Part shown: positions 13,211 through 46,101 of the stretch, in pieces
Numbering within the stretch: position 1 is the first letter of the stretch
Layout of the letters: every line of letters begins with the position of its first letter
NCBI GenBank assembly: GCA_021014325.1
Contig: CM037472.1
Location: 17,345,063-17,409,062 of the forward strand
Reading direction: 5' to 3'
DNA length: 64,000 nucleotides
From: Plazaster borealis
Taxonomy: Eukaryota; Echinodermata; Asteroidea; Forcipulatida; Labidiasteridae
Notes under the pieces: model-generated
Databases searched by the model: none
The model's input: the letters and a program-made list of their open reading frames with translations, nothing else
Told to the model about the DNA's origin: nothing
Program-made: the position numbers and the translations under genes

Positions 13211-13245
13211 GGAAAGACCTGCTTGAAAAACCTTACAACAGTACA

Positions 13246-15737: not shown

Positions 15738-15930
15738 TTAATGATACTAAGTAAATATTCAGCTTGTACACATTTACTCTATATATATATATATATAGGA
15801 TTTACAAGGCTTGTACATCAAACAAAAATAATTGTTATCACTGTATTACTATTGACTTTTCAGTTTGTTGTCCTCCAACGCAATTTGCTGATTAATGTAC
15901 TTTTCTGTCATTTATTTATCTTTGTTCCAG

Positions 15931-17976: not shown

Positions 17977-18476
17977 NNNNNNNNNNNNNNNNNNNNNNNN
18001 NNNNNNNNNNNNNNNNNNNNNNNNNNNNNNNNNNNNNNNNNNNNNNNNNNNNNNNNNNNNNNNNNNNNNNNNNNNNNNNNNNNNNNNNNNNNNNNNNNNN
18101 NNNNNNNNNNNNNNNNNNNNNNNNNNNNNNNNNNNNNNNNNNNNNNNNNNNNNNNNNNNNNNNNNNNNNNNNNNNNNNNNNNNNNNNNNNNNNNNNNNNN
18201 NNNNNNNNNNNNNNNNNNNNNNNNNNNNNNNNNNNNNNNNNNNNNNNNNNNNNNNNNNNNNNNNNNNNNNNNNNNNNNNNNNNNNNNNNNNNNNNNNNNN
18301 NNNNNNNNNNNNNNNNNNNNNNNNNNNNNNNNNNNNNNNNNNNNNNNNNNNNNNNNNNNNNNNNNNNNNNNNNNNNNNNNNNNNNNNNNNNNNNNNNNNN
18401 NNNNNNNNNNNNNNNNNNNNNNNNNNNNNNNNNNNNNNNNNNNNNNNNNNNNNNNNNNNNNNNNNNNNNNNNNNNN
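17977..18476. other. Assembly gap, exactly 500 N
   Basis: A round-number gap, which is a scaffolding placeholder and not a measured distance. The gene interrupted on its left (PTPN14/21-like) does not resume on its right. Confidence 1.
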
Positions 18477-18558
18477 GTTTACATATTACCCTTTGAAATT
18501 TAAATTTTCAATGAAAACCTACTAATTTATGGCAAAACAAGTCACAAGTTTCACACTT

Positions 18559-18598
18559 CACACTGTAACTGGGACACCGGTGTCTCCGTTACAGTGTG
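18559..18598. repeat. 40-bp near-perfect palindrome
   Basis: CACACTGTAAC at the left faces GTTACAGTGTG at the right, with the palindrome GACACCGGTGTC at the centre. Only two base pairs in the 20-bp half mismatch. It could be an element end or a cruciform-prone site; no partner was seen. Confidence 0.8.
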
Positions 18599-18788
18599 AT
18601 GGATAGTTTTGGATCGTATATGAAAACAAAAAATCTGATTCGAGAAATTGAAGTTATACATTAAATGTATGAGCTATCCCCACCACTTAAACATGCAAAG
18701 AATATAGAAAGTACATTATCTTTTGAGATATAACACCATGTCACGCTTTGGCCCCCTTACTTATGGAAAGACCCATATACATGAAGCA

Positions 18789-19135
18789 ACTTGGTAATTG
18801 TCAAAGACCAGTATCATCCACACTTGATGTGACCCAACATATACATGAAGCAACCAACCTGTGAAAGTTTAAAGCTAAATCGGTCTTCGGAGTCATCAGA
18901 AAACAGTGGAAAAACCCCATTATATGTTTTCAAACATCTGATTTTGTCACCAGTGATAAAGACTGATTGTTTAACTCGTTATCCTAAAAACTATAGCATT
19001 TCAAGCAAAACTATTTCAAGGGAAGTTTCCACCATGACCATCTTTATACCATGTAAGTTATGTGCAAATCTGTGAACGTTTATATTTTCAACCTTTTATA
19101 TTTTCAACCTTATTAATGTTGTACACACCCTTTAA
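18789..19135 (+). mobile_element. TTTAAAGG-ended element, left end eroded
   Basis: Enters at TTGGTAATTGTCAAAGACCA without the usual TTAAAGG start and ends CACCCTTTAA. Landmarks shared with 9941-10294 and 47967-48322 include ACTATTTCAAGGGAAGTTTC and ACCATGACCATCTTTATACC. Confidence 0.65.
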
Positions 19136-19454
19136 AGGCAAAGGACAGGGCACTTTTTTACAACTACAATTCTACTTTCTCATATCATAAAACATTGCAA
19201 TAGAAGGACCCGTAAAGAACAAGTTAGTACAACTAAACAATTCTAAAACCAACAATATTTGAAATTGAATCAGGCATACAAACTTTGTGTGTGTATTTTG
19301 GGGGTGTTTTTTTTTTAAGGAACGAAGTGAATCCTCAAAGGTTCCTTTACTATAATTACATGTTTTGGCCTCAAAATATGTAAAGGGAATAGATAATAAA
19401 GAAATGTTAATATATTTGGTTTTGCGGTAACACCATGTGTGTATCTACTTGCCA

Positions 19455-19730
19455 GGTAGAGTTTTTTCTTAGAGAACTGTCTTGCTTAATTCTACTACTG
19501 CGGAGTAGATTGTTCGGGTGTTCGGGAGACTTCTCAGTTCTGAAAAGAACTGTCCTGCTTATTAACTATTACCTGGGCGGATGGTATAGAGTTAGGTTGG
19601 GACTACTACTTTAGCTTGTAGGATCGTAATTAACTGTACTACCGCGGAGTCAGTTCTTGGATTGGTCTCAACGTTTCGACTAGCTTGCTCTAGTCATCGT
19701 CAGGAGACCATGCAATGCCTCAAATCCTAT
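19455..19730 (-). mobile_element. Fragment resembling a Penelope-like element terminal region
   Basis: Identified mainly by the hammerhead-like motif inside it (19664-19709). The flank also holds internally echoed phrases (GAACTGTCTTGCTTAAT / GAACTGTCCTGCTTATT, and CTACTGCGGAG / CTACCGCGGAG), as in repeated terminal regions. No reverse transcriptase or GIY-YIG endonuclease frame is visible, so at most the end of an element is present. Confidence 0.45.
19664..19709 (-). ncRNA. Hammerhead-ribozyme-like motif, Penelope-like-element type
   Basis: Read on the minus strand from 19709: GGTCTC, then CTGACGA (core CUGANGA), then a T and GACTAG-AGCAAG-CTAGTC (six-pair stem II with a six-base loop), then GAAA, then CGTT, then GAGACC, which pairs with the opening GGTCTC to close stem I. 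The order stem I, CUGANGA, stem II, GAAA, very short stem III (A-C/G-U), GUU cleavage triplet is the minimal hammerhead layout reported for Penelope-like retroelements. The extra T after CTGACGA and the tiny stem III make activity uncertain for a single copy. Confidence 0.6.
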
Positions 19731-20620
19731 AAGAAATGTTAAGTTCTCGATATTGGATGAAAGGATCAAACGGGAACTGAAAACCCATGGAAGACTTTGA
19801 AACTTTGTTGACTAGTGAAAGGACGAGCTAACTGGTATCAGTCACTGGCTAGTCACTGAAAATGTTAAGGGTTAACCCTGCTTCTAGTCTGACAGAGGAT
19901 TCAAACTATGGGACCCTTGAAATGCACAGTACTTAAGTTTTGGGTGTTTACATAAAACACACATCCCCAAAACAACTTAGAAGCAGGTAGCTTTTATACA
20001 TGTACGTGTAAATGTTCTGGAATCAGAGTAAATTTGTCATCCAAGTGATGTACAGAATATCAATTGCAAACAATTAAAATTGGATTAAGAATATCTCTGA
20101 AAGTGAATACCATAATACAGACAGTGAGGCCTTTGTAAATTTGACAATCAGTAAAGTGGTAAACTACATGTACAATTGTAGCACAGGTCAATGTCATACC
20201 ATAACTCTGGTTTCCTGTAAACAGACCTCTCCTGATTATTTACTGATTATTTCCTCTTGTGGGTGATTTCTCTTCTGCTTTCATTTCTTTTTCATTTTCT
20301 ACAATAATTCCTAAATTTGTATTAAACTAACAAGCGTCATGTACAGTGGTCTTTTTAAATGCCAATTTGGACCAATTTTTACAAAACTGTTGTCAGTTTT
20401 CCAGTACATGCTTATTTTGGGGGAATAGTTAATTAACTTCTTTAGTCTTAATTCAGTTGAGGCAATCAAATTAAGCATCAATTATTTGTGGGGGTCTTCC
20501 AATTAAATTTTCCTAAATGTCGACAGTTCACTATGCAGATGGAACTATTTCGCACAAGGATTGGTCCTGGTATGAACTTGATAATCAGTGAGCTTCCAGA
20601 TTGAAACAAGTATAGGCCAA

Positions 20621-21017
20621 GTCCAAATCAAGCAAATTTGGCTATTACTATGGCTATAACCGTCGGCTACTGTAGCAACATTAAGGCCTTTTTAGCATGA
20701 CAGCCATAGCCACTGCTGAGGCCATTAACATACGAATCCAATTCAAAGTCCTCCTCCTTGTTTTTAAAGTCAGAAATGATCTAGCTCCTACTTATCTTCA
20801 GAACCTTAATTCTAATAAAGCCCACAGTTCTCGCAATCTATGTTCTTCTTCTACTTCCCATTTGTGCTTGTCCCCTGCACCCCGCACTTTTACGCGGTAT
20901 GGGCAACGAGCCTATAATTGTGTTTATTCACTGATGCTCTGTACATCGCTTTGAAACTTTGTAAAAGGCACTTTATGTTATAACTATTATTATTACTGTT
21001 ATTATTAATTCGGACGC
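20621..21017 (+). mobile_element. MITE of the GTCC...GGACGC family interrupted by a LINE fragment
   Basis: The left part 20621-20728 matches the intact copy at 13030-13145 read in reverse, and the right part 21004-21017 supplies the missing terminal ATTCGGACGC. The intervening 275 bp are foreign. ATTAA occurs at both junctions (20724-20728 and 21004-21008), as expected for a target-site duplication. Confidence 0.8.
20729..21003 (+). mobile_element. 5'-truncated non-LTR retrotransposon (CR1/L2/jockey-like) 3' end
   Basis: Encodes a C-terminal reverse-transcriptase ORF tail with the common LINE phrase IQFKVLLLVFKVRNDLAPTY, and ends in a short 3' UTR (CGCTTTGAAACTTTGTAAAA type) with a TTATTATTATT microsatellite-like tail. 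Only about 80 codons remain, so it is a dead insertion. Confidence 0.75.
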
Positions 21018-22210
21018 AACACAAAATGATCAAGTTTATCTTGACAATTACCAATCCTGACAATTTACTAAGCTACAGTACATGACACAGAAACATAGAC
21101 TGGACTGTAGAATTGCAACATAATTTTCTTTGAAATAAATCTGCACCAATCTGACTCAATATCATACTGTGGTTGTCTTATGTATACATGTGTAAACTCG
21201 GACTACATTAAAACAAAATGCACAGCCCCCACCCCCCCCCCCTTGTAAATTCTTCTTAAAACCGCTTGACCATCATTAAATGCACACATTGCACTGGAGT
21301 GCAACTAGACACATCCTCTCTTGGCACTGTTAAGAAATTGGGTGAACCTCATAATTACCCAAGATTTTGTAACTTCTTGTTCCTTATTTTTGCAATTTTG
21401 AGCGTAAACATCCTCTTGGCAAATTTTTCTGACTTTCTTAATATTTTCAAGTTTCCTGAAAGGCATTTCAAGTTGATACATGTAGTTTGACCACATAAAT
21501 AATATTGATATAGAAAGGGTTTGTAAAACACATGATTTTTGTGGCATTTATATTTGTTTAAAGTGAGTATACATGTAGTGTAAATTTTCACTTTCATTTT
21601 TGAACTATTTTCAAATTAGTACAGTAACTCTGTCACGTTTTTAATCTCTCCCAATTTCCTGGTGAGAAAGTCGCTTCAGACATGTCGGTGCCTAAAAAGT
21701 ATGACAAGAACAAATGACTATTTTGGAATGATCATGTACAAGGTGGATCACATTACAGCATTCCATGTCAATGATCCATGCTCTACATTCTTGAAGTGAC
21801 CTTTCAGATCATAAGGTCACAAAGCTGACGATTTGATGACAGTGTTTGTTTAGCACATTGTGACATTTTGTCTCCGTAAAACCCTTGATTGGCAAGTCAA
21901 GTTCACAACAATTCGCACAGGTGCTGTGCCAATTCTTTTCCCTCCCCAGAGGAAACTCATTTTTCCGAATATACTCAAGATGTCAAATAACTTCATAAAG
22001 AGACATTGGAATTCTTTTAAATTGTTCATAATTCTGTAGAAACCCATCAATTTGCAGGGGGGGAAATCAATACATGAACCATGACAATTTTTGCAGATAT
22101 TTTCAATTTTTGAAAAACAAATTATTATTAAAGATTTTTAGTTTTTCTTTATGTTCCTCAGGTGTGATTAACGTACAAACTTTCAAGATATAAGACTTCT
22201 TACCATAATC

Positions 22211-22619
22211 AGGCATGCAACTGCCCGATGAAAAAAAAAGAGGAAAATTTTCAAAGGCACAACTCAAGCGCAGAACGAGGCAGCCAAAACGCCAAGGGAC
22301 ATGAGACCCACAATGGTACCCTAGAAAATGTTGAGGTTTATTATGCTCTTTTATTATGCTCTTGAAACACTACATGATGTAAGAATGATCGTGGAACGTC
22401 AAGTGAGCGCGCGTCACACACTTACGCTGGTCGAATTGGGGCACCCGTTGATCCAATAACTAGGCTTATTTCACATTATTGTAGTTGTACATTGTTGTTG
22501 CCAAGCATATATTAGGCTTTTAAAAAAAATCTTTAAAAAAAAAAACCCAAAACGCTGATCTTTTTTCTTTCTTTTTTTTACGCGGAAATCCGCAGAAACG
22601 CGGAAGAGTTGCATGCCTG
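22211..22619. mobile_element. Inverted-repeat element with AGGCATGCAACT ends
   Basis: Left end CAGGCATGCAACTGCCCG, right end GAGTTGCATGCCTG, about 409 bp. The interior has poly-A/T runs and GC-richer patches (CGCGGAAATCCGCAGAAACG) near the right end. No ORF of a known transposase. Confidence 0.6.
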
Positions 22620-22646
22620 CATAATTAAGCACCTTTGCAATCAGCT

Positions 22647-22845
22647 GGGCCAAACTTCATAGAGTTGCTTTTAAAGCAGAGAATGATGCTTAACAACATT
22701 CTGCTAAGCAAAAAAACAAGCAGGATACCAGTCACATATTGTACACGTGACATTGTATTTTAGCTGGTAACCTTATTCTGGTAAGCATAATTATGTTGTG
22801 CTTAGCTACTTTATTGTGCTTAGGCAGCGCTATGAAATTGGGCCC
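22647..22845. mobile_element. GGGCCC-ended inverted-repeat element
   Basis: Starts GGGCCAAACTTCATAGAGTT and ends CTATGAAATTGGGCCC. Landmarks CTAAGCA, GATACCAGTCACA and TAGCTGGTAACCTTATTCTG are shared with the copies at 33756-33952 and 45911-46100. Confidence 0.8.
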
Positions 22846-23048
22846 TGACTTGGTACCCTCCCTGTGAACCTGATGTTTCCAAGCGTGCTTTGCCTAAAAG
22901 AGGGTTGATGCATTCTTAAATTTATTGACAAAATGATAACTCGGAAATGCACATTGAAAACTTTTAGTTACATTGTACCATGATCAAGGGAAAACTTGCC
23001 CTGGATTAGAGTACACTGATTAAAAAACTGATCAAATTTTTGACTAAC

Positions 23049-24463
23049 CTCTGGAGTGGTATTGGCACTGTGTCGGGAAGCAGCCGAGGCACCTGTTGTT
23101 GTATTTCTTTTCCGGCCTGTTAGTTTTCTATTCTTGATGACATCCTCAATGTCAAAGTATGTACTCTGGACATCGTAATGCTGGAAGGCAAGTTGCCTCG
23201 TTCTCTCCTCGATCCTATCCTCAAGACTTATGTCTTCCTCCTCTGCTGCCCGAGAAGTCTTCTCCATGGCCTCCGTACGGTCGCTGCCCTTCACACTGCT
23301 GCGCAGTTTCTTCTTGAAGAAGGATTGGTCTGCTGCTGACACAGACTTAGCTCGGTTCTTCTTGTTGCGCTTGCTCTGTCTTCGAGAAACCTTGGGGCTT
23401 CCCCCGAAGTCAGCATTGTCAGTACTATCTTTAGAGAAGAGAAGTTCTCTACTTCCAGACTTTTCAACAGTTGTCTGTTTGGAAACAGAAGGCATACCTC
23501 TGTCACTGTCATCAAAATGGGCACCTCTGTTCACTTTTCCCTGGAGGAGTTTATTAAACTGAGGCGGTGCGGGACTTCTTTGATCCGTGTCTGCCCGATA
23601 ATCTTGCAGCATTTGGAAGAAGCTCTCCCCACCCGAACTCTGTACGTCAATAGATGACGTACTACCATATTCTCGTCGGGGTAACAGGGCGCTGTGATGA
23701 TAGTCCATCCTGTCATTGATTTCGTTAAGGGTGGAGTTACTATTGCTACGACGAAGCTGTGTACGATCGTTCCGTATGAGGTTCCTTACATTATCTGTGG
23801 TCAAGGCTGCTTGTCTGGAAGCATCAATGGTTCCCTGAGATGATACAAAGTACTTATTATCTGGGCTGGTGTTGTGCCGTCGATGAGGGCTACCAGTCAT
23901 CCGAGTCCGTTTATCGTCCGGCACACCATCCCTCCAAAAGCGGCTGTTCCCTGATGGTGTGTTTACCTGATCTTGGTTCCGCATCAGTTGCACCCTGGTT
24001 GCCGTGCTCGTCCGTGATTCGTGAGGGAGGGCTGGTCTCACTTCACCACCTTGCTCTGATCGCTCCCCTAATCTGGTATCCTCATAGTTCCTTTCATACT
24101 TGTCCTCTACTCTCACAGGAGTAGCTATAAAATGTCCCGACGGTAAAGCCCCACTGCTATTAGTGCCGCTTTGGGTTAGTCGATTTACTTCTTCATTTGG
24201 TTTCATTGGGTCGTCCATACTTGGTATCCGCCTGCTGTCAGATCTGGGCGTATAATAGTTGTCACTGCCATCCCCCGATGGAGAGCTCCTCCCATTGGGA
24301 ACCATATTATTGTGGTAGTACTCCGCCATTTGGGTTGCACCCTGTCGTACGCTCTTGATCAGATGGGACTGTGTTGTCGACTGGGACACGTTAGAGTGCA
24401 TGTATGATGGGTAGACACTTCTTCCTTGTGCAGCCATTGCGCATGTCACAGCAGCATTATTGG
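23049..24463 (-). CDS. SIPA1L: SIPA1L/SPAR-family Rap-GAP, large N-terminal coding exon
   Basis: Minus-strand exon with an acceptor TTTTAG before 24463, probable start ATG at 24437 (MAAQGRSVYPSYMHSN) and a GTTAGT donor after 23049, giving 463 codons in phase 0. Conserved SIPA1L landmarks appear in order: REYGSTSSID (residues 255-264), ESFFQML (271-277), DQRSPAP (285-291), a Lys/Arg-Ser stretch then QSFFKKKLRSS (about 371-381), HYDVQS (420-425) and RNTTTGASA (about 444-452). The first 250 residues are polar, Ser/Asn/Arg-rich and weakly conserved. SIPA1L proteins activate Rap GTP hydrolysis and organise actin at postsynaptic and junctional sites. The Rap-GAP domain would follow but is not seen. 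Upstream of the start are a tiny uORF (MLL-stop) and an overlapping out-of-frame uORF. An in-frame start further upstream (24593) is open but crosses the likely acceptor. Confidence 0.88.
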
Positions 24464-25744
24464 CTAAAACGCACAGCGCAAGGGCAGGACAAGGCAATGT
24501 GGTGTCCTTGCCACAATACCAGTTTCCTTCCTTCCTATTCCAGACCCTCCAGTTTCCTGTACAAAATAGTCTCTCCCTCCCTCCCTCTCCCACTCTCTGT
24601 TGAGGAGAGATTGAAACTGATTACCATGGACACAGTTGTTTTGGTTTCCCCATGTCCAGAAAAACAGCAACAATTATCACCACACACATATCACATTCTT
24701 GATTATCGTCAGCAAGTTGTTTCCATTATCAACTTCTCCTACATATAGACGCTCTCACTAATAAATTTTCGGAAGTTTCGGAAGTCAGGATTGTTTTTTC
24801 TTCCTGATAAAAAGTATCTGACGAACTAGTTGCTCTTTCACTTGTTTATAACATCAACAGACGCACTGGTCAGCATTCCTCGCTTCCATGGTAGACAATC
24901 ACCATTTCTGAAAAAAAGGGAGTAAGAGAATAAATACTTATTTTTAGGACAAATCATGTGTACAATCATAGATCAAACAGTACAATACGTGTACAGCTTG
25001 GACAATGCAAGACGTAAAACGTTGGGTCACACAATCGGGTAAAGGGCAAGTCATCCACCGCACTCCTGAAACAAATTTGAGACAGACAACGTGTACTTTG
25101 TACTGCTTATGCTTAAATGGACAACATACCATGGGAAAATGTTGGGTATTTTTAAGCTGCATTAAATAGTGTAACTCAATGCATACACATGCACCGGATT
25201 TGGAATAATCAACAACATGTAACTTACACTCCCATTGCAAATAAAGAGATGTTTATACAAGTCAGTTTGTATTATGTACAGTATGTAACTCAGAATTAGC
25301 AATTGTGTTTGTGATTCAAGCTTTATAATAGTAGGAAGTTGTTATACTTTAAGGTCCATTACAGTTCCAAATTCTAGAGAAATCCTTCCTTTTTCCCAAT
25401 ATTTTTTTTCATTGCATGCTATAAACATATTACACGCACAGAAGTTTGTACTATGCATGCAAGCAACATGCTATTAATTATGAAATGTTCTTGCTTTACT
25501 GAAATCAACCACAAGACAAAATTTGTTGTGAAATTTGAGCATGGCACAAACATGTACATGTACATGTGTAACGTGCATGTACATGATCGTATCACTAAAC
25601 TAGAGAATAAGAACAGAATTAGAAAATGTGTACATTTCCTGAAACTTCTGCACGTACATGTAAAGTGAAATCTGTCCCGGCTCATTAGGCAGGTGTTTAT
25701 ACCCGGTTTCCTGGGCATTAAACGACAGAGAATATTTCTATTCC

Positions 25745-25925
25745 CACTGGACATGATGCCAGTCCATCACAGGTTACTCCCCTGCTCTTGCCGGTACCCA
25801 TTTGTACTCCTGGGTGGAGAGAAGCAATTATGATAAAGTGCCTTGCTCAAGGACACAAGTGTCATGACCGGGACTCGAACCTACACTCTGCTAATCAGAA
25901 ACACCAGAGTTGGAGTCCGTACATG
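25745..25925 (-). repeat. tRNA-derived SINE-like repeat
   Basis: On the minus strand it contains GGTTCGAGTCCCGGTCATGA, a good Pol III B box/T arm (25870-25880 region), followed by GTCCTTGAGCAAGGCACTTT and CTCTCCACCCAGGAGT, a body widely seen in SINE-like repeats of marine animals. The A-box end is eroded. Confidence 0.6.
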
Positions 25926-27957
25926 TAAATGTACTTTCCCTTTAATTTCAGCATTATCATTCACTGACAAACACACCCGCAGACACTAATGACCACATCT
26001 GTACCAACAACCTTGAATGATTTCCACTTTGGATCACTCTACAGGATCAGGACACCCCTGCTTGTATAATTAAACATGGATACACATCACAGCATCGAGA
26101 CACGGCAAACATAAGGCAGAGTAGCAGGGAGTCACACAGACGCCCCGTTAAGATGAGCTGTAGATGACATTCCCTGAATTATACAGAATCCTGAATAAGC
26201 ATGGGAACAAGGCACCGCGGTTTCAACCCAAGCAGACCGGTAGATATCCCTGGTTCAACAACATACAGTCTAACAGACCTGGGCAAAATAACAGTCACAT
26301 GAGGGTCCAGTTGGACTGGGATTAACCATACATGTCCTTGCCAGCCATTCAAAATACATTGTATTGCCAACATGAATGAAAACATTAAGCCATTGTACAC
26401 ACGTGTATGGTACATACATGTACATGTACACTGGTACACTGACTGTACAATAACGTGTAAAGTCCAAGATGTGCATTCATAATTGTAATCGTGGTCATTC
26501 ATTAATCCACTTCCAAGAAAGTTTTATTGTAAGTACCATCAACAAAATGGCACTCAATTTGTGAATAAACACGTGTACAGGCTTCGTACAGTAAAGGTGG
26601 AAGAGTACAATTGCAACCAAAAAGTTAACAGGTGATGTAATTAAATTGCGAAAATGCTGACATAGTGTGACAACCGCAAATCAAAGATGCGGACAATCAT
26701 AGGCTTTATTTTGGAGGTTAAATTATTATTATAATAAATATTTTTTTGAACAGACAATTACTTTTTTAATTATCTGTATTACACACACTTATCTATCATG
26801 TCTGCTGCATCATGGAGCTTACAATACATGGAGCTTTTAGCTCCGTCAACCACACTGAATGCAGTGGTTTGGCAGTGGTTTGTCCCCTGTCCTATGGGTG
26901 TGTTGTATGTACATGTAGTTCCACCTCAGGCAAGCCAACCTCACACGGTTTGGCTCCAGCGATTAAGACCATAGGAAATGCATTGAGTAGGTTTTTCTTT
27001 AAGGATTTACTCACTTCCACTTCCCTTTCAGTTTTCACACACGATGTAAGTTTTTAAAAGACTCAAGGTCTCATTAACAATGTCAAATTGTGTCACAAGA
27101 ATTGCTCTCTGTGAAACAAGTGAATTTGGGGTAAATTATGTACTGTACGGCAGCTTTGAAGTTGGAAATAGTTAAAAACTCCAGCATGCTGCCAATGCAT
27201 ACACACATAAACATTGACTTACACAAGTACCAACAAGATTCCCCTGTTCTTGGCCTGACTGCCCCTTTAAAGTTTCCCCTTTCAATCTGATACATACTTA
27301 AGTGCCCTTAACTCAGGAAAAGTAGACTTCCCCATATGAGAATGAAAATCCAGGCCAGTAAACCATGGAGGTAGGTGTGTAACTATTGATAATGAAAAAT
27401 TGTTAATTGAATCCTTAACGATTTTATTGGTGGTTTTGACGCAGGGGCTTCACACATGTAATTACATCACGTACATTTTTACCAAGCATGAACAGTCCGT
27501 AAAAGTGCAAGCCTACTGGTGACCTCTGCCACTTTTCAAGTGAACAAAGATGATTAGCTGTCTCACATGAAGACCTGTGTATACCTTTTTGTACAAGCAC
27601 ATGTACCAATTCCGTCAAGGGCATTACTATTGTACTTAAAATACTAAGCATTCCTAGAAAACCACCAACCCATGAAGTCCAACTTGATCAAATCCACCTA
27701 TCCACCTACCCACGTATAAATGTACAGTGACACTCTGGCACTCACTTATTGATATCGTGATTGACCAGAAGGCAGTGGGTGGTGACTTTGATTCATGATG
27801 ATTAAGAAATGTGAAACTATGACCAACAATTACGCACTCAGCAGCTGTTGTTACTTTTGTGGTATAAACATTGAAGAACCTGTGTGAACCGTTTGGAACT
27901 AAAAAATGTAACGTAAGGGTGGAAAGTACAATGTACACAACAGCAATCTCCCTTAAC

Positions 27958-28165
27958 AGTGGTCCACTGGTGAAATGCCAGTTCAAACACCTGAGGAGTG
28001 AGGACCAGTCAAAATTCACTCCAAGTGGTCCGGCTGACTAGTTTAGTGTTGAAAAGTACCCCTACTTCATTTGAAATAAGGACTCATTAAAAAAGCTGAC
28101 TAACAAAGTGAAATAACAAGCTAACTGGTCATGCTGACTAGTCACTGAAAAAGTTAAGGGCAAAC
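27958..28165 (-). repeat. Dispersed repeat, CTGGTC/GACCAG-rich, copy 1
   Basis: The reverse complement contains GACCACTTGGAGTGAATTTT and GACTGGTCCTC, matching the plus-strand copy at 38837-39045 over about 200 bp. A shorter related stretch lies at 19800-19880. Non-coding. Confidence 0.7.
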
Positions 28166-31472: not shown

Positions 31473-31849
31473 AATTTAAAACTGCAAACATACACAGTTA
31501 AAGGGCATCATTTCCACTAAGGAATCAACTACTTATGATCAGCCCACTAACATAAAAATCTCATTTCACAGTCCAGCAGAGTTGATCCCCACTAGCCATG
31601 GGTGTGTGTGTGTATTGAGTGTCTTACTGGCCCTGCTGACAGAAGATCTGGACATGCCAGGCATTCTTCCTGTATTGGAAAATTGGCTAAGTAACATCAA
31701 CAGGCATTACAGCCCATGTTTGTGTAATAACAGAGAATGTCAAACTTGTAGAAACCAACTGTGACCAGGTTCCACTGAAAGAAATGAAAAAGTATTCGCA
31801 CAAGATTGGTTCTTTCTATCCCCCTTCATGTTTACTGGGTGAACCTTCT

Positions 31850-32570: not shown

Positions 32571-33551
32571 CCCCGAATTCAACCAGTACATGTACGTACG
32601 TGCATCCAATAGCTAATTCACAACCCTCCCAATCCTCCAAATCCTCAGGTTGATTTTGGAGGATCTAGGAGCGTAAGGGTTCTATTCCTTCCTCCATGGT
32701 TAATCTAATGAACTGAAAAACCAACGCCATCATTGAACTGTTCACTTGTCAACCAAACATACTCTTTACACATGCTACATATATGAATTTATAAACAAAC
32801 CTTGGTAATTTCTAAATTCCCACATTGCGTGGCACTGGGTTACAATTTAGGGGAAGACATGCGCTGCAAATACTGTGGACACTCCACTTGCCAGCGAGTG
32901 ATTTATCATACAATAAATCATACATAAATGTCAAATGAGTTCTTGTATTTACCACAGAGCATTGTGTATTTTACACCAACTCTTAGAATCTGCACATTGT
33001 GTACACACTGTACATATAAAGGTACACATCATGTATATGAACCTACTATGGTACTATATACACACCTACACATCAGATTTTGAACATATGTTCAAAGCTA
33101 AAAGCAAACACTTGGCCATGCTTGACCATTGATAGAGCCCTTAAGTACAAACACAATACAACAACAGGGAAACAATTAATAAACAAATAGTGTGCAGAAG
33201 TCTCCGCCAGTGCACAATGCCAAGTACAACCAAATCTATGTTGGTGATTTTCATTAACACCGTGGGAAAGACAAACTAACTTCAAGTGCAAACTGTCTTG
33301 GTGCAACAAAACCTGTCTTTTATTGTGCAGAGTACTGGTCGTGTGAATGACCTATCAGGTGAGGTCGAAAACTGTGTAGGCGTTAGGATTGTCAAAAATC
33401 CAAGGATGAACAGGCTTTACTGGCCCCACTGCACAACCACAAAATTAACGAAAAAATTCCAAAATACCTGAACACACCCCCTTAAATCATCCACATATCT
33501 TTGCAAACAACTCCCTTTTTTAGGATAAATCACTGGAAAAATTGTATCAGC

Positions 33552-34110
33552 AGGGTCCAATTTCATAAAGCTGTTAAACTGAAAATACATGCTACATATT
33601 GTATGCAAAGCACAAATGGTCAGAAAAAACCCCGTCACAAGCTATGTGCACAACGTAGGCCTAAGTGTTTTGTCTGGAAACCTGTTCCTGCTCAGCAACT
33701 ATTTTATCTGGCCAAGTAAATTAAGTCTACTTACCAGCTTTATGAAATCATCCCAGGGCCCAATTCCATAGACCTGCTTTTAGCAGAAAATACTGCTAAA
33801 CAATTTTCTGCTCAGCAAAAATTAGCAGGATACCAGTCACAGGTGGTACATGTATATGCATTTGGTATCTTGGCTGGTAACCTTATTCTGTTAAGCATAA
33901 TTTTGTTGTGCTGAGCTGTTTTTTGTGCTTACACAGCTCTTTGAAATTGGGACATGGGTCCAATTTCATCAAGCCTACAATTGCTAAACACAGAAAAGAA
34001 TTGCTTATAAATAGAAACAGGTTACCTGCCAAAACAGTATAATGTTCTGGGTGTTGGGACTGGTACCCCAATCAATTTTTGCTCAGCAGCGTCATTTTCT
34101 AAGCAGTACT
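33552..34110. mobile_element. Cluster of three GGGCCC-ended elements in tandem
   Basis: Successive ends occur at 33552 (GGTCCAATTTCATAAAGCTG), 33756 (GGGCCCAATTCCATAGACCT to about 33952) and about 33957 (GGGTCCAATTTCATCAAGCC). The middle copy is the best preserved; the flanking copies are diverged. This suggests the family inserts into or next to its own copies. Confidence 0.75.
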
Positions 34111-34625
34111 TTCTACTTTAAAAAAAAACAGCTTTACCAAAAAAAGAAACCTTTAGTCTTATCAAGTCCACACCAATTACTAAGTTTCAATAATTACTGC
34201 CCAAACAAACAATTGCATCCAGACCACAGCTGGTAAGTAACTGATTATCAATCGATCAATTGGATGACATCCTTTTGTTTGTCTTCAATTTCTTTCAGTC
34301 TGTAATCAGGTACTAATTGCCTTATCTTGGTGAGAGATACATGTCCACTTATAGTTAGGCCACGGTTGTACATCGCATAATCTACAATTCCAAACAGATG
34401 TATAAATAATTTGTGCATGGTCATTTAATTTTTAAGGCTCCACGGCATTACCAATTAGACAGAGAGTACATGTACACATGTTATACATTTTTTTAAAGTT
34501 AATGCCCCATCAAAAAATACAACCCCCCAAAACCCAAAAGTCCAGTTAAAGGCATCAATTTTTGAGATGACATATTGTTCTGCACATGTAAGCACCCATC
34601 ATGCTAATAACAAAGACTGGATCAA

Positions 34626-34658
34626 ATCATGGAGGTAGAATTATTCTACCTCCATGAT
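34626..34658. repeat. 33-bp perfect palindrome with one-base centre
   Basis: 16-base arms, ATCATGGAGGTAGAAT and its exact complement, separated by one T. Related half-sites (CATGGAGGTAGAAT or CATAGAGGTAGAAT) are seen singly at about 2831 and 41151, so it may be a minimal element made of two terminal repeats. Confidence 0.85.
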
Positions 34659-34934
34659 CAAATGTAATGCAGGGCATGTGTGAGGGCAAGTGTTAGGTTC
34701 AATTGTCGGGTCGCACCTGGCACTGCATGTTCATTTAATATTATTTTGCCAAGTAAAGCTTCCAACTGTAAACTTACGTATGTAACTGTAAAAGATGATG
34801 CATAATATTGAGAATCCAGGTTTAAATTCTTATATTCATTGTACAAATGATGATTTGTTATAATATGTACAGTAAGGTACAACTCATATTAGTAATGTAC
34901 AGACAGACTGCATTATTTATGTATCAAAAGAGGT

Positions 34935-36535
34935 GTGTGTGTTATTGCAATACTAGCCTTGATCAAGGCAGTCGCATTTTTCACTCCAAAAAAGACGCCG
35001 TAAACACACCCGTATGTGTGTGCGTAAGGTGTGTATCGTATCGCATGACCCACCCGTATACACTGTGTGTGTATCACGTCGTACGACGCCCGTACACACA
35101 CTGTGCGCAGGTCATCCGCACTCGTACCACTCTCCGCATGCGGAGGCCGTCAGGCCGACAGCCTTGACGGGTCTGTAACTTCCGGGTTTAATGTGTTTCT
35201 TGATATTTTCGTCCAATATTGGACGAAAATGGGGGGGCTCTCGGATATGCTAGTATGCAGGTCATGAATATTGAAATCTTTCGTCAGACCTATTGCAGAC
35301 AACACAGGATGGGAAGCAAATGAATTATTCATTTTGACGTCCAATCACGAGCTTCTCTCACTATGACCTTTGTACCATATCAATATCATGCTTGCTGTAT
35401 GTGATGCGATGTGAGTAGTTACCGACTTAATGGCGTTTGTGTGTAGCATTGTCTCAGCCATTTGGACCGGTAATCTGCGAGGCTGGTCAGTCAGCTCACA
35501 AGTGCTGAACCCGGGCGCGGCCCCTGGAGCTTTTTGCGCTGCACTCAAGTTCCCTCATTGGACTACCCTGATCACTCGCCATTCTTTTGGTTATTAATTC
35601 TGGAGTTGATGTAGTTTCTGCATCTGTCTTTTCCTGACATGTCCTCTCGAAGTCCGACTCTGTGCAGCCACACCGTCTTCATACTTTTGAATTGTTCTCA
35701 GACAGGGTCTTATAAGAATTTACTGCCAAACAAAAATTGACAGGATACAGCCACACATGATACATGTGAAATAGATTTTTAGCTACCCTATTCTAGTGAA
35801 TGTACTTGGGAAATTTGGTTAGGCAGCTCTTTTTTAGTGGGGCGGCCCAAATGATATAAAAAGTGCAATGAGCTATATGCCTTCATGATGAAACAATCAA
35901 TAATGGTAGTTTATTGAGGTCTTTGTTTTGTATATTCTACCTCCAATGAATGCACCAACAATGATTAAATCACTGTTTAATGATGCAAGATGGAGACAGT
36001 AGATGGTCAATCGGGCCTTACGTCACTACGAAAAATACATCAGAAAGCGTCTTCCTGCTGGAAAATGGTGTATGTAATGTATGTAACAAATCGATCCACG
36101 CAACCTCATTTGTTTAATTCCATGCCCTCATTGTCTCACTCAGCTGAGGAGAATACGCAACATTTTCAGATAGATATTGTTATAACAAAGTATTCCCAAA
36201 TTCAAACCGGCGCGCCAGTGTAGCCACATCTGGATTCTGCATGACTTCCGCCACTGACCAATGGGGTCTCGCCTTTCGCACGCATTATAGTAATGAGTCA
36301 TCGGCGGGGAGACAGAAACGTCAAGGCGTTGATCGGTGAGTGTCGCATACAGCTCACACGACCACGCGCGCACCGTATACTGCACACACAGACACCATGC
36401 GCACAGCTCGAGCGGGTTGGTAGCTCGGGTTGGTAGCTCGGGTGTGTAGCGCGGCGCAAATAAAATAAAAATGAAAACAATATAATAAAATTGAGAAAAA
36501 ACTCCAACGCCTTGATCAAGGCTATTGCAATACAC
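34935..36535. mobile_element. Candidate 1.6-kb element with long diverged inverted repeats
   Basis: Left end ATTGCAATACTAGCCTTGAT followed by CAAGGC; the right end read in reverse is TATTGCAATAGCCTTGATCA followed by AGGC. Weaker inverted similarity continues inward (GCCTTGACGGGTCTGT on the left against GCCTTGACGTTTCTGT on the right), suggesting arms of 200 bp or more. The interior is richer in CpG than its flanks and contains a diverged GGGCCC-family copy at about 35695-35850. No transposase frame was recognised. Alternatively the CpG-rich part could be a promoter region of the SIPA1L gene. Confidence 0.45.
35205..35230. repeat. 26-bp perfect palindrome
   Basis: ATTTTCGTCCAAT followed directly by its exact reverse complement. 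It lies inside the left part of the 34935-36535 candidate element. Confidence 0.9.
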
Positions 36536-38836
36536 ACTTGCCATTATTATCAGGTCAACAAGGCCTCAATGCATTGATAAAAAAAAGGGAGATCAAAACA
36601 AGAACAGTCACTGTTTATTCCCAAGGTCAAGACATAGCCTGACCTTGCCGCTGGATTAAGGTCAAAGGTCAAAGGTCATTCAGGGATTGAGACTTCAAGG
36701 GTAACTACAATGTTTTGTGATAATAATCCACCAGTCTGTCATCCTGATATCTGAAAGGATAACAAAGTGAACAAGACTAGTGTCAACTAGTCTTGTACAG
36801 TATTTTTTTGTTGTAAGAACGGCGACTTGTAAAATTGTGGTATGTTTTGACTTGTAAGTAATTGTTCACTTCACTGTACTGCTCTGGGTCATTCAACTGA
36901 ACAAGTTTACCAAAATTCCTTTGTGTACAGTTGTGTGCCTGTTTACATTGTACTCTTGTGGAATAGTACACAACTTTGACCAAATAAAAGGTTGGATCAC
37001 AAAAACAGCAGGACTTGGGAGTGTTTCATGAACCACATGAGCCACTCTTGAATTGATAGGTTGTAGGAATCACGCTGGCAGATGGCTGCTGGTGAGAATT
37101 TCAGATACATCAGAAGGTGATCCCTTTCACACGTTTTGGGCTGTCTAAAGTGTGGCATTATTAAGAATAAAGAAAGTGTTTTGTGGAGCATTACTTTTCT
37201 TCTTCGGTGGAGGGGGGGAAAGATGTGTGACGGCAGATAATAAGTGAAAATCAGTCATGCAATGAGAGTGTGTGCTTGAGGAGCTTACGTGAACAGGCAT
37301 GCTACATGTAGGTTAGAACAATCGTTTACTACAACACACACATTTCACAACACGTACGTGTGCATATTACTCTACTAATAATAATAATAATAATAAGACT
37401 TGTAATGCGCACATATCCACCCTGCTGGGTGTTCAAGGCACATCTACTGTATAAGTTTTACATGAAATCATGTAGACTTCCATAAACAGCTACAAAAGTG
37501 AGTCTGGTGTCCATATGTCATCAAGTCATTGTGAACATCCTTCAATGAAAATCAACCTAAATTGGGTCAAAGTACCTGCTTCAAGTCTTCCAATTTATTT
37601 AATATTTAAGACCAGTAAAAAAATACAGGAAAATGAAAAAACTGGAAACGCCTACTGATAATTTGTTTTAGCTACTTGGTATTAATTTACATTGCACAAA
37701 CTGTTCTTCAAGCACAAATTGTAAGATTTCACTAAGTGTATACATGCAGGCTTCCCCCTCATCTTTTCCTTGGTGCCCCTTGAAAAGTTCCAATGAAATT
37801 TACGATTTCTTTATCTGAGCATCTGAGGTAGCCTTTACACAGGAAAAACACCTTAGTGCCCTTGCCCTTTCAAGAATGAAGCATCAGGTCTGTACATGTA
37901 GTTTGTTTAACCTAAGATCTGCAAACCCTTTTTCTTTTGAGTGTGCAGAACATGTCGCCACCGTTTTCACGAAAAGCCACGTATCTCAAAATGACAAATT
38001 ATTGATTTTTACAAGAAGGAGCCTGTATCTCAAATAATTGCATTATGCGTTTTCACAAAGAGCCACAAGCCCCTAAAGATGTGTGTAATACATTTCAACA
38101 GAAGAGCGTAAATTGTAGGTCAACGTGTTTTTTCGGGTTTCACGAAGAGCCACTAATGTCAGTGTGCACGTGATCATGTGACATGCATGGCCCTTTCCTT
38201 TGTAAAAACAAGTTAATTTTCAGTTGGGTGATTAATTAGGTCATCTCACTTTTTACAAAGAGACACAATATCTTTGACTTACTAATTACTATGCCAATTA
38301 GCCAATAAAAGAAATTAGTTAGTCAATGGAAAAGTTAAACTTAAACAGAATCATATGAAAGGTCTTAACCTGCAAACCGTGGCTTTGGTATTGCAGATTT
38401 GCAGTTTTAAGCCAAGCAGTGTGTGTACAAATGTAAATCTCAATCAAGCGTTTGGACATAAGTGGCTCTTCGTGAATACAGTGACGATGTGGGCGATCCA
38501 AGGGGCTTCATATAGAGGTAAAGAAATACTAACCTGTAAATTATTTAGATTAAATTTCCCCCATTAAATTACTGACTGTCTGAGTGTGCAATCTCAGTGA
38601 CAGACTGTGTTCACATGCCTGCCTGACTCTACCCTCACAACACCTCAATCATAGCGGGAATAATTCCATAAGCCCATAATTTGATTTGTGTATGCGGTGG
38701 TATTAATTACATATGTGCACTTCACATTAACATACCTTCCGTGTACAGAATGTATCAATCATGCGCCCAAAGTGTACACGTTGTGAGCATCTATGGTCCT
38801 TTCTCTATGTAGTGAGTAGGCGTGTCAGGGTTTGGC

Positions 38837-39045
38837 CAAAACTTTTTTAGTCACTGACTGGCCAGCAGGACCAGTTAGCTTGTCATTTTTCTACTAGTCC
38901 ATCACCTTTTTCTCTAGTCCATTTTTTAAATGAAACAGGGATGCTTTTCAACACTGAACTAGCCAGCGGGACCACTTGGAGTGAATTTTGGCTGGTCCTC
39001 GGGTGTTTTAACTGGCTTTTGGCCAGTTGACCACTGTTAGGGAGA
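38837..39045 (+). repeat. Dispersed repeat, CTGGTC/GACCAG-rich, copy 2
   Basis: Plus-strand copy of the repeat at 27958-28165, with GACCACTTGGAGTGAATTTT and GGCTGGTCCTCGGGTGTTTT. The two copies are in opposite orientation 11 kb apart. Confidence 0.7.
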
Positions 39046-41164
39046 ATGCTGCATGTATAGTATGGACCTAAACAATGTACATGTGTGCAACACATTCAAG
39101 CAGGATCTGTAACCAATTGTTTTCACCAATTACAAAAAGCGAGAAAAAGAAATTGATTTGAAATTGCTGCAAGTTATAAGAACTGCAACTCATTAAAACA
39201 TCTCACTTTTCTCAAAACAGAGACTAAGAAATTGAGAAACAATCTATTAAATTTCACTGATAGTGAATAATTAGGCAAATTTTCTTTACTTGTTCAATTG
39301 AGTTCAGATACATCCACATCGTACAGGTGCAGTTGCAGTGACTTCACATTGCAGTCGGATCATCGGCTGTCTTTTGTGCTCAGTCCTTTGATAACACTAA
39401 CGGTGCATCTTTTGTGCTGGACCACATTCCAACCTTACGCTCCAGGCATGAGGACAAATGGCAGGCCACTTTACTAGGACATCTCTCGTGCGTGAACCCT
39501 ATTGTTGGTACATGTGCATACGAGTGATAGCACTAGTCCTTCACAGGGTTCTCACCAGATTTTTTTTTAAAAAATTGTCGGGCATTCTGGACCCAAATTT
39601 TTGAAGTTTGGCCTAAGCATGCTGAATCTCAAAACGAGTCCTCAGAATGTTTGATTAATTAAGAGCTTATCTTCGGCTTTAAAAGCCCTTCTGTATAGTC
39701 TGCATGGATTCTGCTTAGCAAGTTCCTTGCCAACCCAACAATTAGCATGACACTGGTCAAAATAATGATATCTTTATGGCGATGGGGCTGGTAACCAACA
39801 ATATTTCTGTGCTTAGCAAAATGTGTGTGCTTACCAGCTTCATGAAACTGGGTCCTGATCACTTTTTTGTCCTAAGAAAATTACTGAAAAAAGGGGCAAA
39901 GCAATTTCATTGAAGAAACTTTATTCTTCCTTGACATGTACACCCTCAGAACGTTTACAGTATAGGTGTATTGGGGAAAAACTGGTCTTCTTTCTAGTCT
40001 TCTTCCTCTATTGAGAACAGTTTGCCAAACCTCCAACAAACAGAGAGAAAGACAGCAAAAGCAGTTTAATAAAGAACAAACACAAAAACCTTATAAAAAT
40101 TAGCAGAAAATAAAAATGCCTAGTTGTGTACACATGTACACACAAAGCTACGTGTACGTTAAAAAAAAAGTCATCCTTGGCAGAAAATTACCAATCCTAT
40201 GCAGAAATTAGCACACCAAAAGGTCATTATTTTTAGAATTGAGGTGAAGAACATTCTTTGTCTCTCTTGCTTTATAATCAACAGTGACAACAATTAAAAT
40301 AGACAACCAATTTCAAATCTTAGTGACAGCCTTTCTCTGAACAACTGTCAGAAAATTCAAAATAACAATTTTTAACAAAATTGATTAATACATGAATTTG
40401 TTTTAAAAATGTATGACGCTTCTAGCTTATTATAAAAAACCCTGGACTCAAAGGATCCAACAAACCGCATAAAATACCCTGTCTAAGTACTTCAAAAGAA
40501 TAACAATCGTACACTTCTGGACTATCCTTGGTGGTGATGACCAAAGGACCAAGCTCAATACAAAGCATACTTCAGAGTTGGTCTCTTCCCGCAGCACACT
40601 GACACTGTCCCCAGTATTGTTAAACAAAAAGGGAGCATTAACTTTGCTATGGATCATAAGAGTGAGCTGTCCACATTCATCTTAGTATGGATTAGCATTC
40701 CAATGGCTGTGCCTCTCGGCCATTCACAGCCTGGATCCATGGCATGACACCAGGTACCATGCACACTTTATACTGGTTGCTGTCCAGTCACCCATATAAT
40801 GACAAGTAGAATGTCTTGGTTACCAGGACAGTTGTTGATAGGATAGTTCTTCACCATGTTTGTACATGTTGTGACTTGTTTGACCGAAAGCAAAATGCAC
40901 CGGTGATTTTTCAAAATCAAGATGATTGATGCCTGAATTCCATAACTTTAATAGCATCTTTTCATTAACCAAGGGTTCCTTCTACACCAAAAAATATTGC
41001 TCATAGTTGTAGACCACGCGTAATGCATTGTTTTTAAGGCAACATTCAACTTTCTTGTGTGGAGTATTCATGAGGCTACCCAGTATAGTACCAATCTCCT
41101 GGGGACAGGGTATTTAGAAGTTTGCCATAGGTATATAGGGGGTATTCCCATAGAGGTAGAATTC

Positions 41165-41349
41165 CAGAGCTGCCGACATATGCATCTTGCAATCAGGGAG
41201 TTTTTGTGCAACAGTTAGGGAGATATTTAGAATTGCATTCAAAAGCTTCCATAATCAGGGAGATTTTCCAATTGGTTCATCATACTATTGAAAGAATGGT
41301 ATATTTTCAGGGAACTTTCTGCAGAATCAGGGAGCATTGGCAGCTCTGG
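41165..41349. mobile_element. Short inverted-repeat element with CCAGAGCTGCC ends
   Basis: Starts CCAGAGCTGCCGAC and ends GGCAGCTCTGG, 185 bp. The interior repeats AATCAGGGAG three times. Non-coding. Confidence 0.65.
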
Positions 41350-41667
41350 TATTCCTAATAAATTTACGAACTTGCAGTTTCAATAGTGAAATGAGTAAAC
41401 ATGGTACACCTTCTGTACATACAATACCAAGTCTCAAAAATGACCACACATGTTTGGTGTTAGGTAATTACATGTATTGGTGTATACATCAATTACTGAC
41501 CAATATAAGGTGCAAGTTTGTTGAAACTAAAAGTCCTTCAAAATCCATTCACCTGGTTTTGCCTTATTTTGATGGATTCCAAGGCATGGCATAACCAGTC
41601 GCGCTTAGCATGTCATCAGGCATCATTCCCCAACATTAAGATTAAAGGTTTGAACTTTTGAAACCCA

Positions 41668-41937
41668 GGGGTCGATTTCACTAAGCACTAAAATTCATCT
41701 TAATATGAGTTGTCAGTATTACCAATCCATAGTGATAAGGAATGAAATGTAAATGGCCCAGTGACCAGGGGTAATAATGTTGGAAGCGCTTTGAGACGCC
41801 CTTCGGGAGTGAAAAGCGCTATATAAAAACTGGTTATTGTTATTATTATTATTTGTATTGTGACATCACACTTTGCTTAGCAATTAAGATTGATTTGCAC
41901 TTAAGATCAATCTTTGCTCTTTCGTGAAATCGAGCCC
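41668..41937. mobile_element. Inverted-repeat element containing a retroposon-like tail
   Basis: The outer ends GGGGTCGATTTCACTAAGCA and TTTCGTGAAATCGAGCCC are inverted copies. Inside is GCGCTTTGAGACGCCCTTCG followed by AAAAGCGCTATATAAAAACT and (ATT)n, the typical 3' end of a CR1/L2-like LINE or dependent SINE. It may be a nested insertion like the one at 20621-21017. Confidence 0.6.
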
Positions 41938-42683
41938 AGAAGTAAAAGTTTGGAGTTGCTGTACAAGTACACAGAATTCAAATTAATTCAAGAGGGTTCC
42001 TGAATAATAAAAATGCTTCAAAGAGGCTTGGGTTTGGTTAAGAATAAAAAATAAACAAAATTACCGGAAGTTGCTAATTACCGATTCTTCTTGTCCCTCT
42101 ACATGTGGTAAGCACCAGTACATTGAACAGTATTAGGTCGAATAAGCCATGCATACTTACCTAAAATTAATGACCATAAAATAAACATGCATACCAAAGG
42201 ACACAATATCATCTACTTGTACCAGCAAATCAGTTAAAAACATTCACAATTTCCTATACTGTAATATGAACAGATGCTTATAAGGAATGGCTTCAGGGAC
42301 AAGAAGTGAATGTCATACATATATACAAAAAGTATGTTCAGTACTTCGGTATGACAATTCCATTTACGGCATGGTAGAGTAGTCACATTTATGCATCGCT
42401 CACCATCCCCACAAAAATATTAACATGTCAAATTATCCCCATCAAACTACGGAAGATTTCATCACAAACAATGGGGGACTTTTGGGACGCTAGGTGGCAG
42501 CAGACTTACCAGGTAAATCCATTGTTCTTGTAATGTGCGCATGCTCAGAACTGTGTAAACAATGGAAATTTACCTGGTAAGTCAAAGTATAAACTTTGAA
42601 TTAAATAACCTGAAAACATTACTCTATTTTATTTCAATTGTATGCATGCATACATATATATCTATTAACTTCTGATTAGTATG

Positions 42684-43062
42684 TTAAAGGAATTGTATAT
42701 GTTTGGTATCTGGAACCCACTTTTTTTTCAATCCTATATGGTTGTAGATATCATAAAACTAACCTGTGAAAATTTCATTTCAAAAGGTCATAGCGTTTTT
42801 GAGATATTGCCGAAAATCTGGAGCGATTATGTCCACGCAGGAAGAATAATTTGCAATAAGATTACACAATCTGAGAAACGTTACTGTCAGTAACGCTTCT
42901 CGGATTCAAATTTTTGGGGATAAAATTAAAAAGTGATACTAAGTGAAAAGTTTCTCAAAATGCATTATAATGTACTATCCAAAGCTGCTGTACTTCTTAC
43001 CAAGTAAGTTTTTATTGCCATTAATTTTCAGAGTCATTACCAAACATATACAGACCCTTTAA
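42684..43062 (+). mobile_element. TTTAAAGG-ended element, GTATACC subfamily
   Basis: Starts TTAAAGGAATTGTATATGTT and ends ACCAAACATATACAGACCCT then TTAA. The interior has GCCGAAAATCTGGAGCGATT and TATGTCCACGCAGGAAGAAT. Close to the copy at 60651-60997. Confidence 0.85.
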
Positions 43063-43476
43063 ATAAACAAAATTTAACAAAATTCTCTATGCCTACATTT
43101 AGATTCCTATCAAAATGTGATACAACAGCTAATTTACTTCTATCATAGGACCATAAAAATAGCAACAGAGATGCCTCACTGGTCAATTAATCCATGATTA
43201 AACACCCCTGATTAAGCATCACCTCCAACACAAAGCACAAAGCTCAAAATCCCATTGGGACGCTGTTAAATTTGTGACTCACCCCCATTCAGGGTGACGC
43301 TCTAATCTGCAGCCTCATTTGCATCTAGCTAAATATTGCCCTAGATGCATTAACCATTGGATGATTAGCGTTATAGGGATTAATAATCAATGGGGGTGTT
43401 CCATAGGGAGCCAAGATTTGGTAAAAGGGTGTCCAAATTTGCTGGATTTTAAAAACTGGGTGTCCAAATTTGCTGG

Positions 43477-43976
43477 NNNNNNNNNNNNNNNNNNNNNNNN
43501 NNNNNNNNNNNNNNNNNNNNNNNNNNNNNNNNNNNNNNNNNNNNNNNNNNNNNNNNNNNNNNNNNNNNNNNNNNNNNNNNNNNNNNNNNNNNNNNNNNNN
43601 NNNNNNNNNNNNNNNNNNNNNNNNNNNNNNNNNNNNNNNNNNNNNNNNNNNNNNNNNNNNNNNNNNNNNNNNNNNNNNNNNNNNNNNNNNNNNNNNNNNN
43701 NNNNNNNNNNNNNNNNNNNNNNNNNNNNNNNNNNNNNNNNNNNNNNNNNNNNNNNNNNNNNNNNNNNNNNNNNNNNNNNNNNNNNNNNNNNNNNNNNNNN
43801 NNNNNNNNNNNNNNNNNNNNNNNNNNNNNNNNNNNNNNNNNNNNNNNNNNNNNNNNNNNNNNNNNNNNNNNNNNNNNNNNNNNNNNNNNNNNNNNNNNNN
43901 NNNNNNNNNNNNNNNNNNNNNNNNNNNNNNNNNNNNNNNNNNNNNNNNNNNNNNNNNNNNNNNNNNNNNNNNNNNN
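43477..43976. other. Assembly gap, exactly 500 N
   Basis: Second round-number gap, closing the 25,000-bp block. SIPA1L C-terminal exons begin only 118 bases after it with no preceding Rap-GAP or PDZ exon in the window. Confidence 1.
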
Positions 43977-44093
43977 TCATATTTGTATGCTCATGGTATT
44001 CAAAATAAATGAACACTATAAAAGTATGTAAACTTTAATATTAAAGACATGAGGTTTGTATTTTTATGAGTTTATATATGTTTTCCCCCTCAG

Positions 44094-46100: not shown

Positions 46101-46101
46101 G

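What the first reader, a model, noticed from the sequence alone, without database searches (positions are those of the whole stretch)
17977..43976. Block of exactly 25,000 bp between two 500-N gaps: a likely Hi-C correction fragment put back in the wrong place or orientation
The non-N sequence between the gaps is 18477-43476, exactly 25,000 bases, and both gaps are exactly 500. These round numbers match what I recall as default editing resolution and gap size of the 3D-DNA scaffolder. The gene content supports it: the block holds an N-terminal SIPA1L exon on the minus strand, the next block holds C-terminal SIPA1L exons on the plus strand, and the PTPN14/21-like gene on the left breaks off at the first gap.
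Basis: partly seen in the sequence, partly recalled or inferred. Interest (0 to 1): 0.8.

Follow-up and report, generated by a model that had tools for sequence, protein, structure and literature searches.

The report
Flipped 25-kb scaffolding fragment breaks genes
In this starfish genome assembly a 25,000-base piece was put back upside down and its two 25,000-base neighbours were left out of the chromosome by the assembly process, which breaks two genes that are whole in related starfish; it is a computer artefact, not biology.

Summary
The block's true neighbours are unplaced contigs of the same assembly, C184 and C185, each exactly 25,000 bases. Restored order: left flank - C184 - block reversed - C185 - right flank. 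Block edge 18477 cuts a dispersed repeat; C185 starts at base 1 with its missing part (59/60). The other edge cuts a short tandem repeat that C184's last 26 bases continue in register. Each match was found for one of 30 edges compared. In that order Acanthaster SIPA1L1 maps in sequence along residues 1-1968 (short stretches unmatched), and Asterias PTPN21-like along 1-1289, on one strand. As deposited, the SIPA1L N-terminal exon is reversed and residues 473-1158 are missing; PTPN21-like stops at 171. The assembly is very probably Plazaster borealis, scaffolded with 3D-DNA v180419 and Juicebox (PMC9270726; its N50 equals the length of C17). Of 40 unplaced contigs sampled, 14 are exactly 25,000 bases, so the fault may be widespread. 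Assembly artefact of a known kind.

The parts
5153..16630 (+). four exons of a PTPN21/PTPN14-like gene (5153-5335, 9656-9826, 15926-16027, 16547-16630; residues 1-171); the other exons are on unplaced contig C184
   Evidence: tblastn of Asterias rubens P0241 and Acanthaster P0242; FERM_N Pfam hit over cut-off
17977..18476 (.). 500-N gap; in the restored order C184 (25,000 bases) follows the left flank here
18477..43476 (-). 25,000-base block, inserted in reversed orientation
   Evidence: repeat seams; exon order
18477..18779 (.). dispersed repeat arm cut by the block edge; its continuation is C185:1-60
   Evidence: 36 of 41 other copies keep the upstream 20 bases; C185 start matches 59/60
23043..24437 (-). 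N-terminal exon of the SIPA1L gene (residues 1-472 of A. planci SIPA1L1)
   Evidence: homologues
43427..43476. about 1.6 copies of a 31-base unit, cut by the block edge; the last 26 bases of C184 continue it in register (too short for Tandem Repeats Finder, which lists nothing here)
43477..43976 (.). 500-N gap; in the restored order C185 (25,000 bases) precedes the right flank here
44093..52988 (+). C-terminal exons of the same SIPA1L gene (44093-44665, 45345-45482, 47212-47847, 48449-48595, 49656-49874, 52842-52988); two more lie past the window at about 65555-65851 and 67558-67695

Best explanation
This is a scaffolding artefact. A continuous long-read contig was cut on a 25,000-base grid, most likely by the Hi-C misjoin editor of 3D-DNA. 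Three consecutive bins came out as separate pieces: C184, the block, and C185. The outer two ended among the unplaced contigs. The middle one was scaffolded back between the same two large neighbours but upside down, with 500-N spacers. Shown: exact sizes, both seams of the block, its flipped orientation, where the missing pieces are, and that both genes run in order along the restored sequence. Documented for the matching assembly: 3D-DNA v180419 and manual Juicebox correction. Inferred: that the two outer bins were flagged and the middle one was not; that orientation was lost because a 25-kb piece gives little Hi-C signal; that no further sequence is missing at the left|C184 and C185|right seams.
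For: Sizes: block, C184 and C185 are each 25,000. Seam reversed block|C185: the block edge cuts a repeat; 36 of 41 other copies share the upstream 20 bases; C185:1-60 is the reverse complement of the 60-base upstream stretch, 59/60, starting at base 1; the other 29 of 30 edges compared match at most 22/60. Seam C184|reversed block: the last 26 bases of C184 equal the last 26 of the 31-base unit that starts the reversed block; the other 29 of 30 edges share at most 4. Exon order: 20 of 20 tblastn matches (E up to 1e-3) of A. planci SIPA1L1 are colinear on one strand: reversed block 1-472, C185 470-1158, right 1159-1822; residues 1817-1920 and 1923-1968 follow just past the window. 15 of 15 matches (E up to 0.01) of A. 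rubens PTPN21-like are colinear: left 1-171, C184 164-1289. Splice phases, read by eye, agree across the three joins that genes cross (0/0, 0/0, 1/1). Provenance: scaffold N50 24,975,817 in the Plazaster borealis paper = C17 length; 179 draft contigs became 801 scaffolds; 3D-DNA v180419 and Juicebox.
Against: No read, draft contig or Hi-C map could be examined. The seams left|C184 and C185|right rest on gene order and splice phase, not on a repeat that crosses them; the search meant to test C185|right did not complete and none was run for left|C184. The 25,000 and 500 defaults are recalled, not read. In the SIPA1L mapping residues 627-629, 992, 1404, 1670-1682, 1759-1773 and 1921-1922 of the A. 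planci protein are unmatched, none of them at a piece boundary. The held assembly has 717 sequences and 560,608,030 bases against 801 and 561,050,340 in the paper, and its 22 large scaffolds sum to 518,877,062 against 518,884,334, so it is a slightly different version.
Confidence: 0.96

Rival explanations
1. All three 25-kb bins were excised and the middle one was put back by hand, flipped, during Juicebox curation.
For: [quoted passage not shown] The end product would be identical.
Against: From recall, adjacent flagged bins would be merged into one larger fragment; 50,000-base contigs do exist (3 of 40 sampled). A curator would have little reason to restore one of three.
Confidence: 0.2
2. 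The block is a real inversion in the animal, with the missing exons deleted or moved.
For: The deposited chromosome reads that way.
Against: The breakpoints are exactly 25,000 apart, both lie at spacer gaps, both cut repeats whose continuations start or end two other contigs of exactly 25,000 bases, and those contigs carry the missing exons of both genes in order.
Confidence: 0.01
3. The block comes from another locus and the shared SIPA1L gene is a coincidence of paralogues.
For: The repeat family at edge 18477 has many copies, so a repeat match alone could mislead.
Against: SIPA1L residues 1-472, 470-1158 and 1159-1822 meet at the piece boundaries without loss; the seams are exact to the base; C184 and C185 bear neighbouring numbers and carry the matching parts of the two flanking genes; of 12 Rap_GAP matches in the genome, the best and one more are on C185 and the other 10 lie on C12, C21, C2 and C18 near 29.18 Mb. 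Those 10 were not examined for being a second SIPA1L gene.
Confidence: 0.02

Closest known systems
Hi-C scaffolding artefact: 3D-DNA misjoin-correction fragments and orientation errors of short pieces
   Same: pieces of exactly 25,000 bases, 500-N spacers, unplaced contigs of the same size, assembly documented as 3D-DNA plus Juicebox
   Different: here the correction looks false: the cut contig was right at two seams, and the two excised neighbours can be named and put in order from the public sequence alone
SIPA1L (signal-induced proliferation-associated 1-like) gene family
   Same: colinear along A. planci SIPA1L1 once the pieces are reordered
   Different: split into three pieces in the deposited assembly, the Rap-GAP core being unplaced
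PTPN14/PTPN21 FERM-phosphatase gene family
   Same: colinear with A. rubens PTPN21-like 1-1289
   Different: in the chromosome only residues 1-171 are present; the phosphatase part is on C184

Membership tests
3D-DNA correction artefact | piece length equal to the coarse editing bin (25,000; value recalled) | tested here: met
   block 25,000; C184 and C185 25,000
3D-DNA correction artefact | spacer gaps of one fixed size (500; value recalled) | tested here: met
   both gaps in the window are 500; gaps elsewhere were not surveyed, and none lies in the 10 kb on either side
3D-DNA correction artefact | many unplaced pieces of the bin size or its multiples | tested here: met
   14 of 40 exactly 25,000, 3 of 40 exactly 50,000; C182-C194 13 of 13
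3D-DNA correction artefact | cut positions ignore sequence features | tested here: met
   both block edges lie inside repeats
3D-DNA correction artefact | assembly made with 3D-DNA | tested here: met
   PMC9270726 section 15; that the held assembly is that one is inferred from N50, size and 22 large scaffolds
3D-DNA correction artefact | debris label of C184 and C185 and Hi-C depletion at those bins | not testable with these tools
   no .assembly or .hic file held
SIPA1L family | Rap-GAP domain between the family's N-terminal and C-terminal (SPAR) regions in one gene | tested here: met
   Rap_GAP over cut-off on C185; colinear with A. planci SIPA1L1, whose listed domains include Rap_GAP and SPAR_C. 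SPAR_C in the one exon scanned was below its cut-off
SIPA1L family | PDZ domain after the Rap-GAP domain | not tested
   a PDZ-like stretch on C185 was recognised by recall only; no domain search was run on it, and the A. planci protein is listed without a PDZ family
PTPN14/21 family | FERM domain followed by a phosphatase domain | tested here: met
   FERM_N, FERM_C on C184, alignment along the whole A. rubens protein, whose listed domains include the phosphatase PF00102

The most novel reading that the evidence does not exclude
The fault is systematic: false misjoin calls cut correct nanopore contigs at many places, some hundreds of 25-kb bins were dropped, and other surviving single bins are flipped, so that many genes are broken and statements on gene loss or synteny from this assembly are affected. 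From 14 of 40 sampled, roughly 150-350 of some 695 unplaced contigs would be single 25-kb bins. That other bins are falsely cut or flipped was not tested.
Probability: 0.7. Interest if true: 0.3.

Novelty: not a real feature. Interest (0 to 1): 0.2.

Why it matters
Two conserved signalling genes look truncated in this assembly's chromosome when they are whole. The correct order can be derived from the public assembly alone: unplaced contigs of bin size carry the missing exons and their edges fit. The same reading could be applied to other 3D-DNA assemblies: a placed piece whose length is an exact bin multiple, with consecutively numbered unplaced contigs of the same size, is a flag for a falsely cut contig.

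Tried and rejected
Simple inversion in place with nothing missing: rejected, because the right flank does not continue the repeat cut at 18477 (20/60) and the SIPA1L core is absent from the window. Block in place as deposited: rejected, because the left flank does not continue it either (15/60). Real inversion and paralogue coincidence: see rivals. A printed statement of the 25 kb default was not found: one search gave 0 papers; one search gave 15 papers that name the parameter, of which I looked at passages in 2, where it was set to 100,000 and 50,000; the listings led to passages in 2 more papers, which do not give it. One search (gene names in papers) gave nothing of use. The PDB comparison of the N-terminal exon gave 0 matches. 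Whether other flipped blocks exist was not tested. A seam search for left|C184 was not run; those for C185|right and for the left, right and block edges did not complete.
Full report
Observation. The window has two N runs, 17977-18476 and 43477-43976, both 500, and the block between them is exactly 25,000 bases. The window is G000:C18:17345063-17409062 of a 560,608,030-base assembly in 717 sequences. No other gap lies within 10 kb on either side; gaps elsewhere were not surveyed.

Other pieces of the same size. I sampled 40 unplaced contigs by number (C23 to C717): 14 of 40 are exactly 25,000 bases, 3 of 40 exactly 50,000, 3 of 40 are other multiples of 1,000 (14,000; 67,000; 178,000) and 20 of 40 are not multiples of 1,000. 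All 13 consecutively numbered contigs C182-C194 are exactly 25,000; C177 and C178 too, but C179, C180 and C181 are not. These were looked at because C185 is among them, so they are no random sample. Of the 22 large scaffolds, 5 (C1, C2, C3, C10, C15) have lengths that are multiples of 500; with chance 1/500 each this has probability 8e-10.

Provenance. The 22 large scaffolds, the total size and a C17 length of 24,975,817 match the Plazaster borealis assembly in PMC9270726 (abstract and outline, and sections 5, 8 and 15, seen): 561,050,340 bases, 22 chromosomes, scaffold N50 24,975,817. That paper states 179 draft contigs with N50 11 Mb, 801 final scaffolds, 42 Mb unanchored that 'required further investigation', 3D-DNA v180419, and Juicebox v1.13.01 used to validate orientation and remove ambiguous fragments by hand. 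The species name is an inference from these equal numbers; the held version is slightly smaller (717 sequences; 22 large scaffolds 518,877,062 against 518,884,334). That 25,000 and 500 are 3D-DNA defaults is recalled; (passages) show only that the editing resolution is a parameter that others set to 100,000 and 50,000. [quoted passage not shown] passages of PMC13085270 say that scaffolders' breaking steps sometimes break contigs wrongly.

Edge 18477. The block begins inside a dispersed repeat. Among 41 other copies held in 29 loci, 36 keep the same upstream 20 bases (17 or more matching); 5 do not, by small indels or other sequence (copies listed; only the best 40 candidates of the genome were scored). 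Neither the left flank end nor the reversed right flank start has that stretch (15/60 and 20/60). So the block abuts neither deposited neighbour at this edge.

The missing core. SIPA1L-type proteins match the block's long minus-strand exon, but beyond that exon they find only chance-level matches in the window. A genome search for Rap_GAP gave 12 matches, the best on C185:12330-12602 (+) and another at C185:10244-10363 (+). C185 is 25,000 bases. Its first 60 bases are the reverse complement of the repeat stretch that the block lacks, 59/60, starting at base 1; of 30 edges compared, the other 29 match at most 22/60. Hence the reversed block runs into C185.

Edge 43476. A FERM_C search gave 14 matches, one of them on C184:2804-2953 (+), next in number to C185 and also 25,000 bases. 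The last 26 bases of C184 equal the last 26 of the 31-base unit with which the reversed block starts; the other 29 of 30 edges share at most 4. Hence C184 runs into the reversed block. The edges compared were those at hand: 21 contig starts, 4 contig ends (C184 among them) and 5 edges of C185, the flanks and the block.

Gene order in restored sequence. The A. planci SIPA1L1 protein (P0121, 1968 residues) gives 20 of 20 matches (E up to 1e-3) on one strand in order: reversed block 1-472, C185 470-1158 (13 matches), right flank 1159-1822 (6 matches); residues 1817-1920 and 1923-1968 follow at about 65555-65851 and 67558-67695, past the window. Unmatched are residues 627-629, 992, 1404, 1670-1682, 1759-1773 and 1921-1922, none at a piece boundary. 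The A. rubens PTPN21-like protein (P0241, 1289 residues) gives 15 of 15 matches (E up to 0.01) in order: left 1-171 (4 matches), C184 164-1289 (11 matches); A. planci PTPN21-like gives the same picture. As deposited, the window gives 7 SIPA1L matches on two strands with 473-1158 absent, and 4 PTPN21-like matches ending at 171. Splice sites, read by eye: PTPN21-like left exon ends AAG|GT, phase 0, C184 exon begins CAG|AAC, phase 0; SIPA1L first exon ends GAG|GT, phase 0, C185 exon begins CAG|GGT, phase 0; C185 last exon ends AGA G|GT, phase 1, right exon begins CAG|AT GGA, phase 1.

Interpretation. The most likely course: the Hi-C editor flagged two bins, C184 and C185, of a correct contig, and left the bin between them. 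The flagged bins went to the unplaced pile; the 25-kb remnant was scaffolded back at its locus with no reliable orientation, and came out reversed. Each 500-N gap thus hides a missing 25,000-base piece and joins a flank to the wrong end of the block. A hand edit that restored only the middle piece would give the same product and cannot be told apart here.

Limits. No reads, Hi-C map or draft contig could be examined. The seams left|C184 and C185|right rest on exon order and phase only. How many other loci are affected was not tested; 14 of 40 gives a rough 22-50% of unplaced contigs as single 25-kb bins, from a systematic, not random, sample.

Noticed in passing
18477-18779; loci L002-L031: Dispersed repeat with arms of about 302 bases, in several loci present as an inverted pair about 300-400 bases apart (L004, L007, L011, L012 and others): looks like a fold-back or MITE-type element.
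   Followed up: partly
31954-32572; 44735-45142; 54043-54624; 58036-58310: Minisatellite arrays with units of 50, 18, 29 and 17 bases.
   Followed up: no
C1, C2, C3, C10, C15 (whole scaffolds): Five of 22 chromosome-scale scaffolds have lengths that are exact multiples of 500, as if built from grid-cut pieces and 500-N spacers.
   Followed up: partly
G000:C340:1-1500 (L098): The first 1,500 bases of this unplaced contig read N: a gap or a withheld stretch, cannot be told.
   Followed up: partly
   Followed up: no
C177, C178, C182-C194: Long run of consecutively numbered unplaced contigs of exactly 25,000 bases: candidates for other falsely cut neighbours.
   Followed up: no
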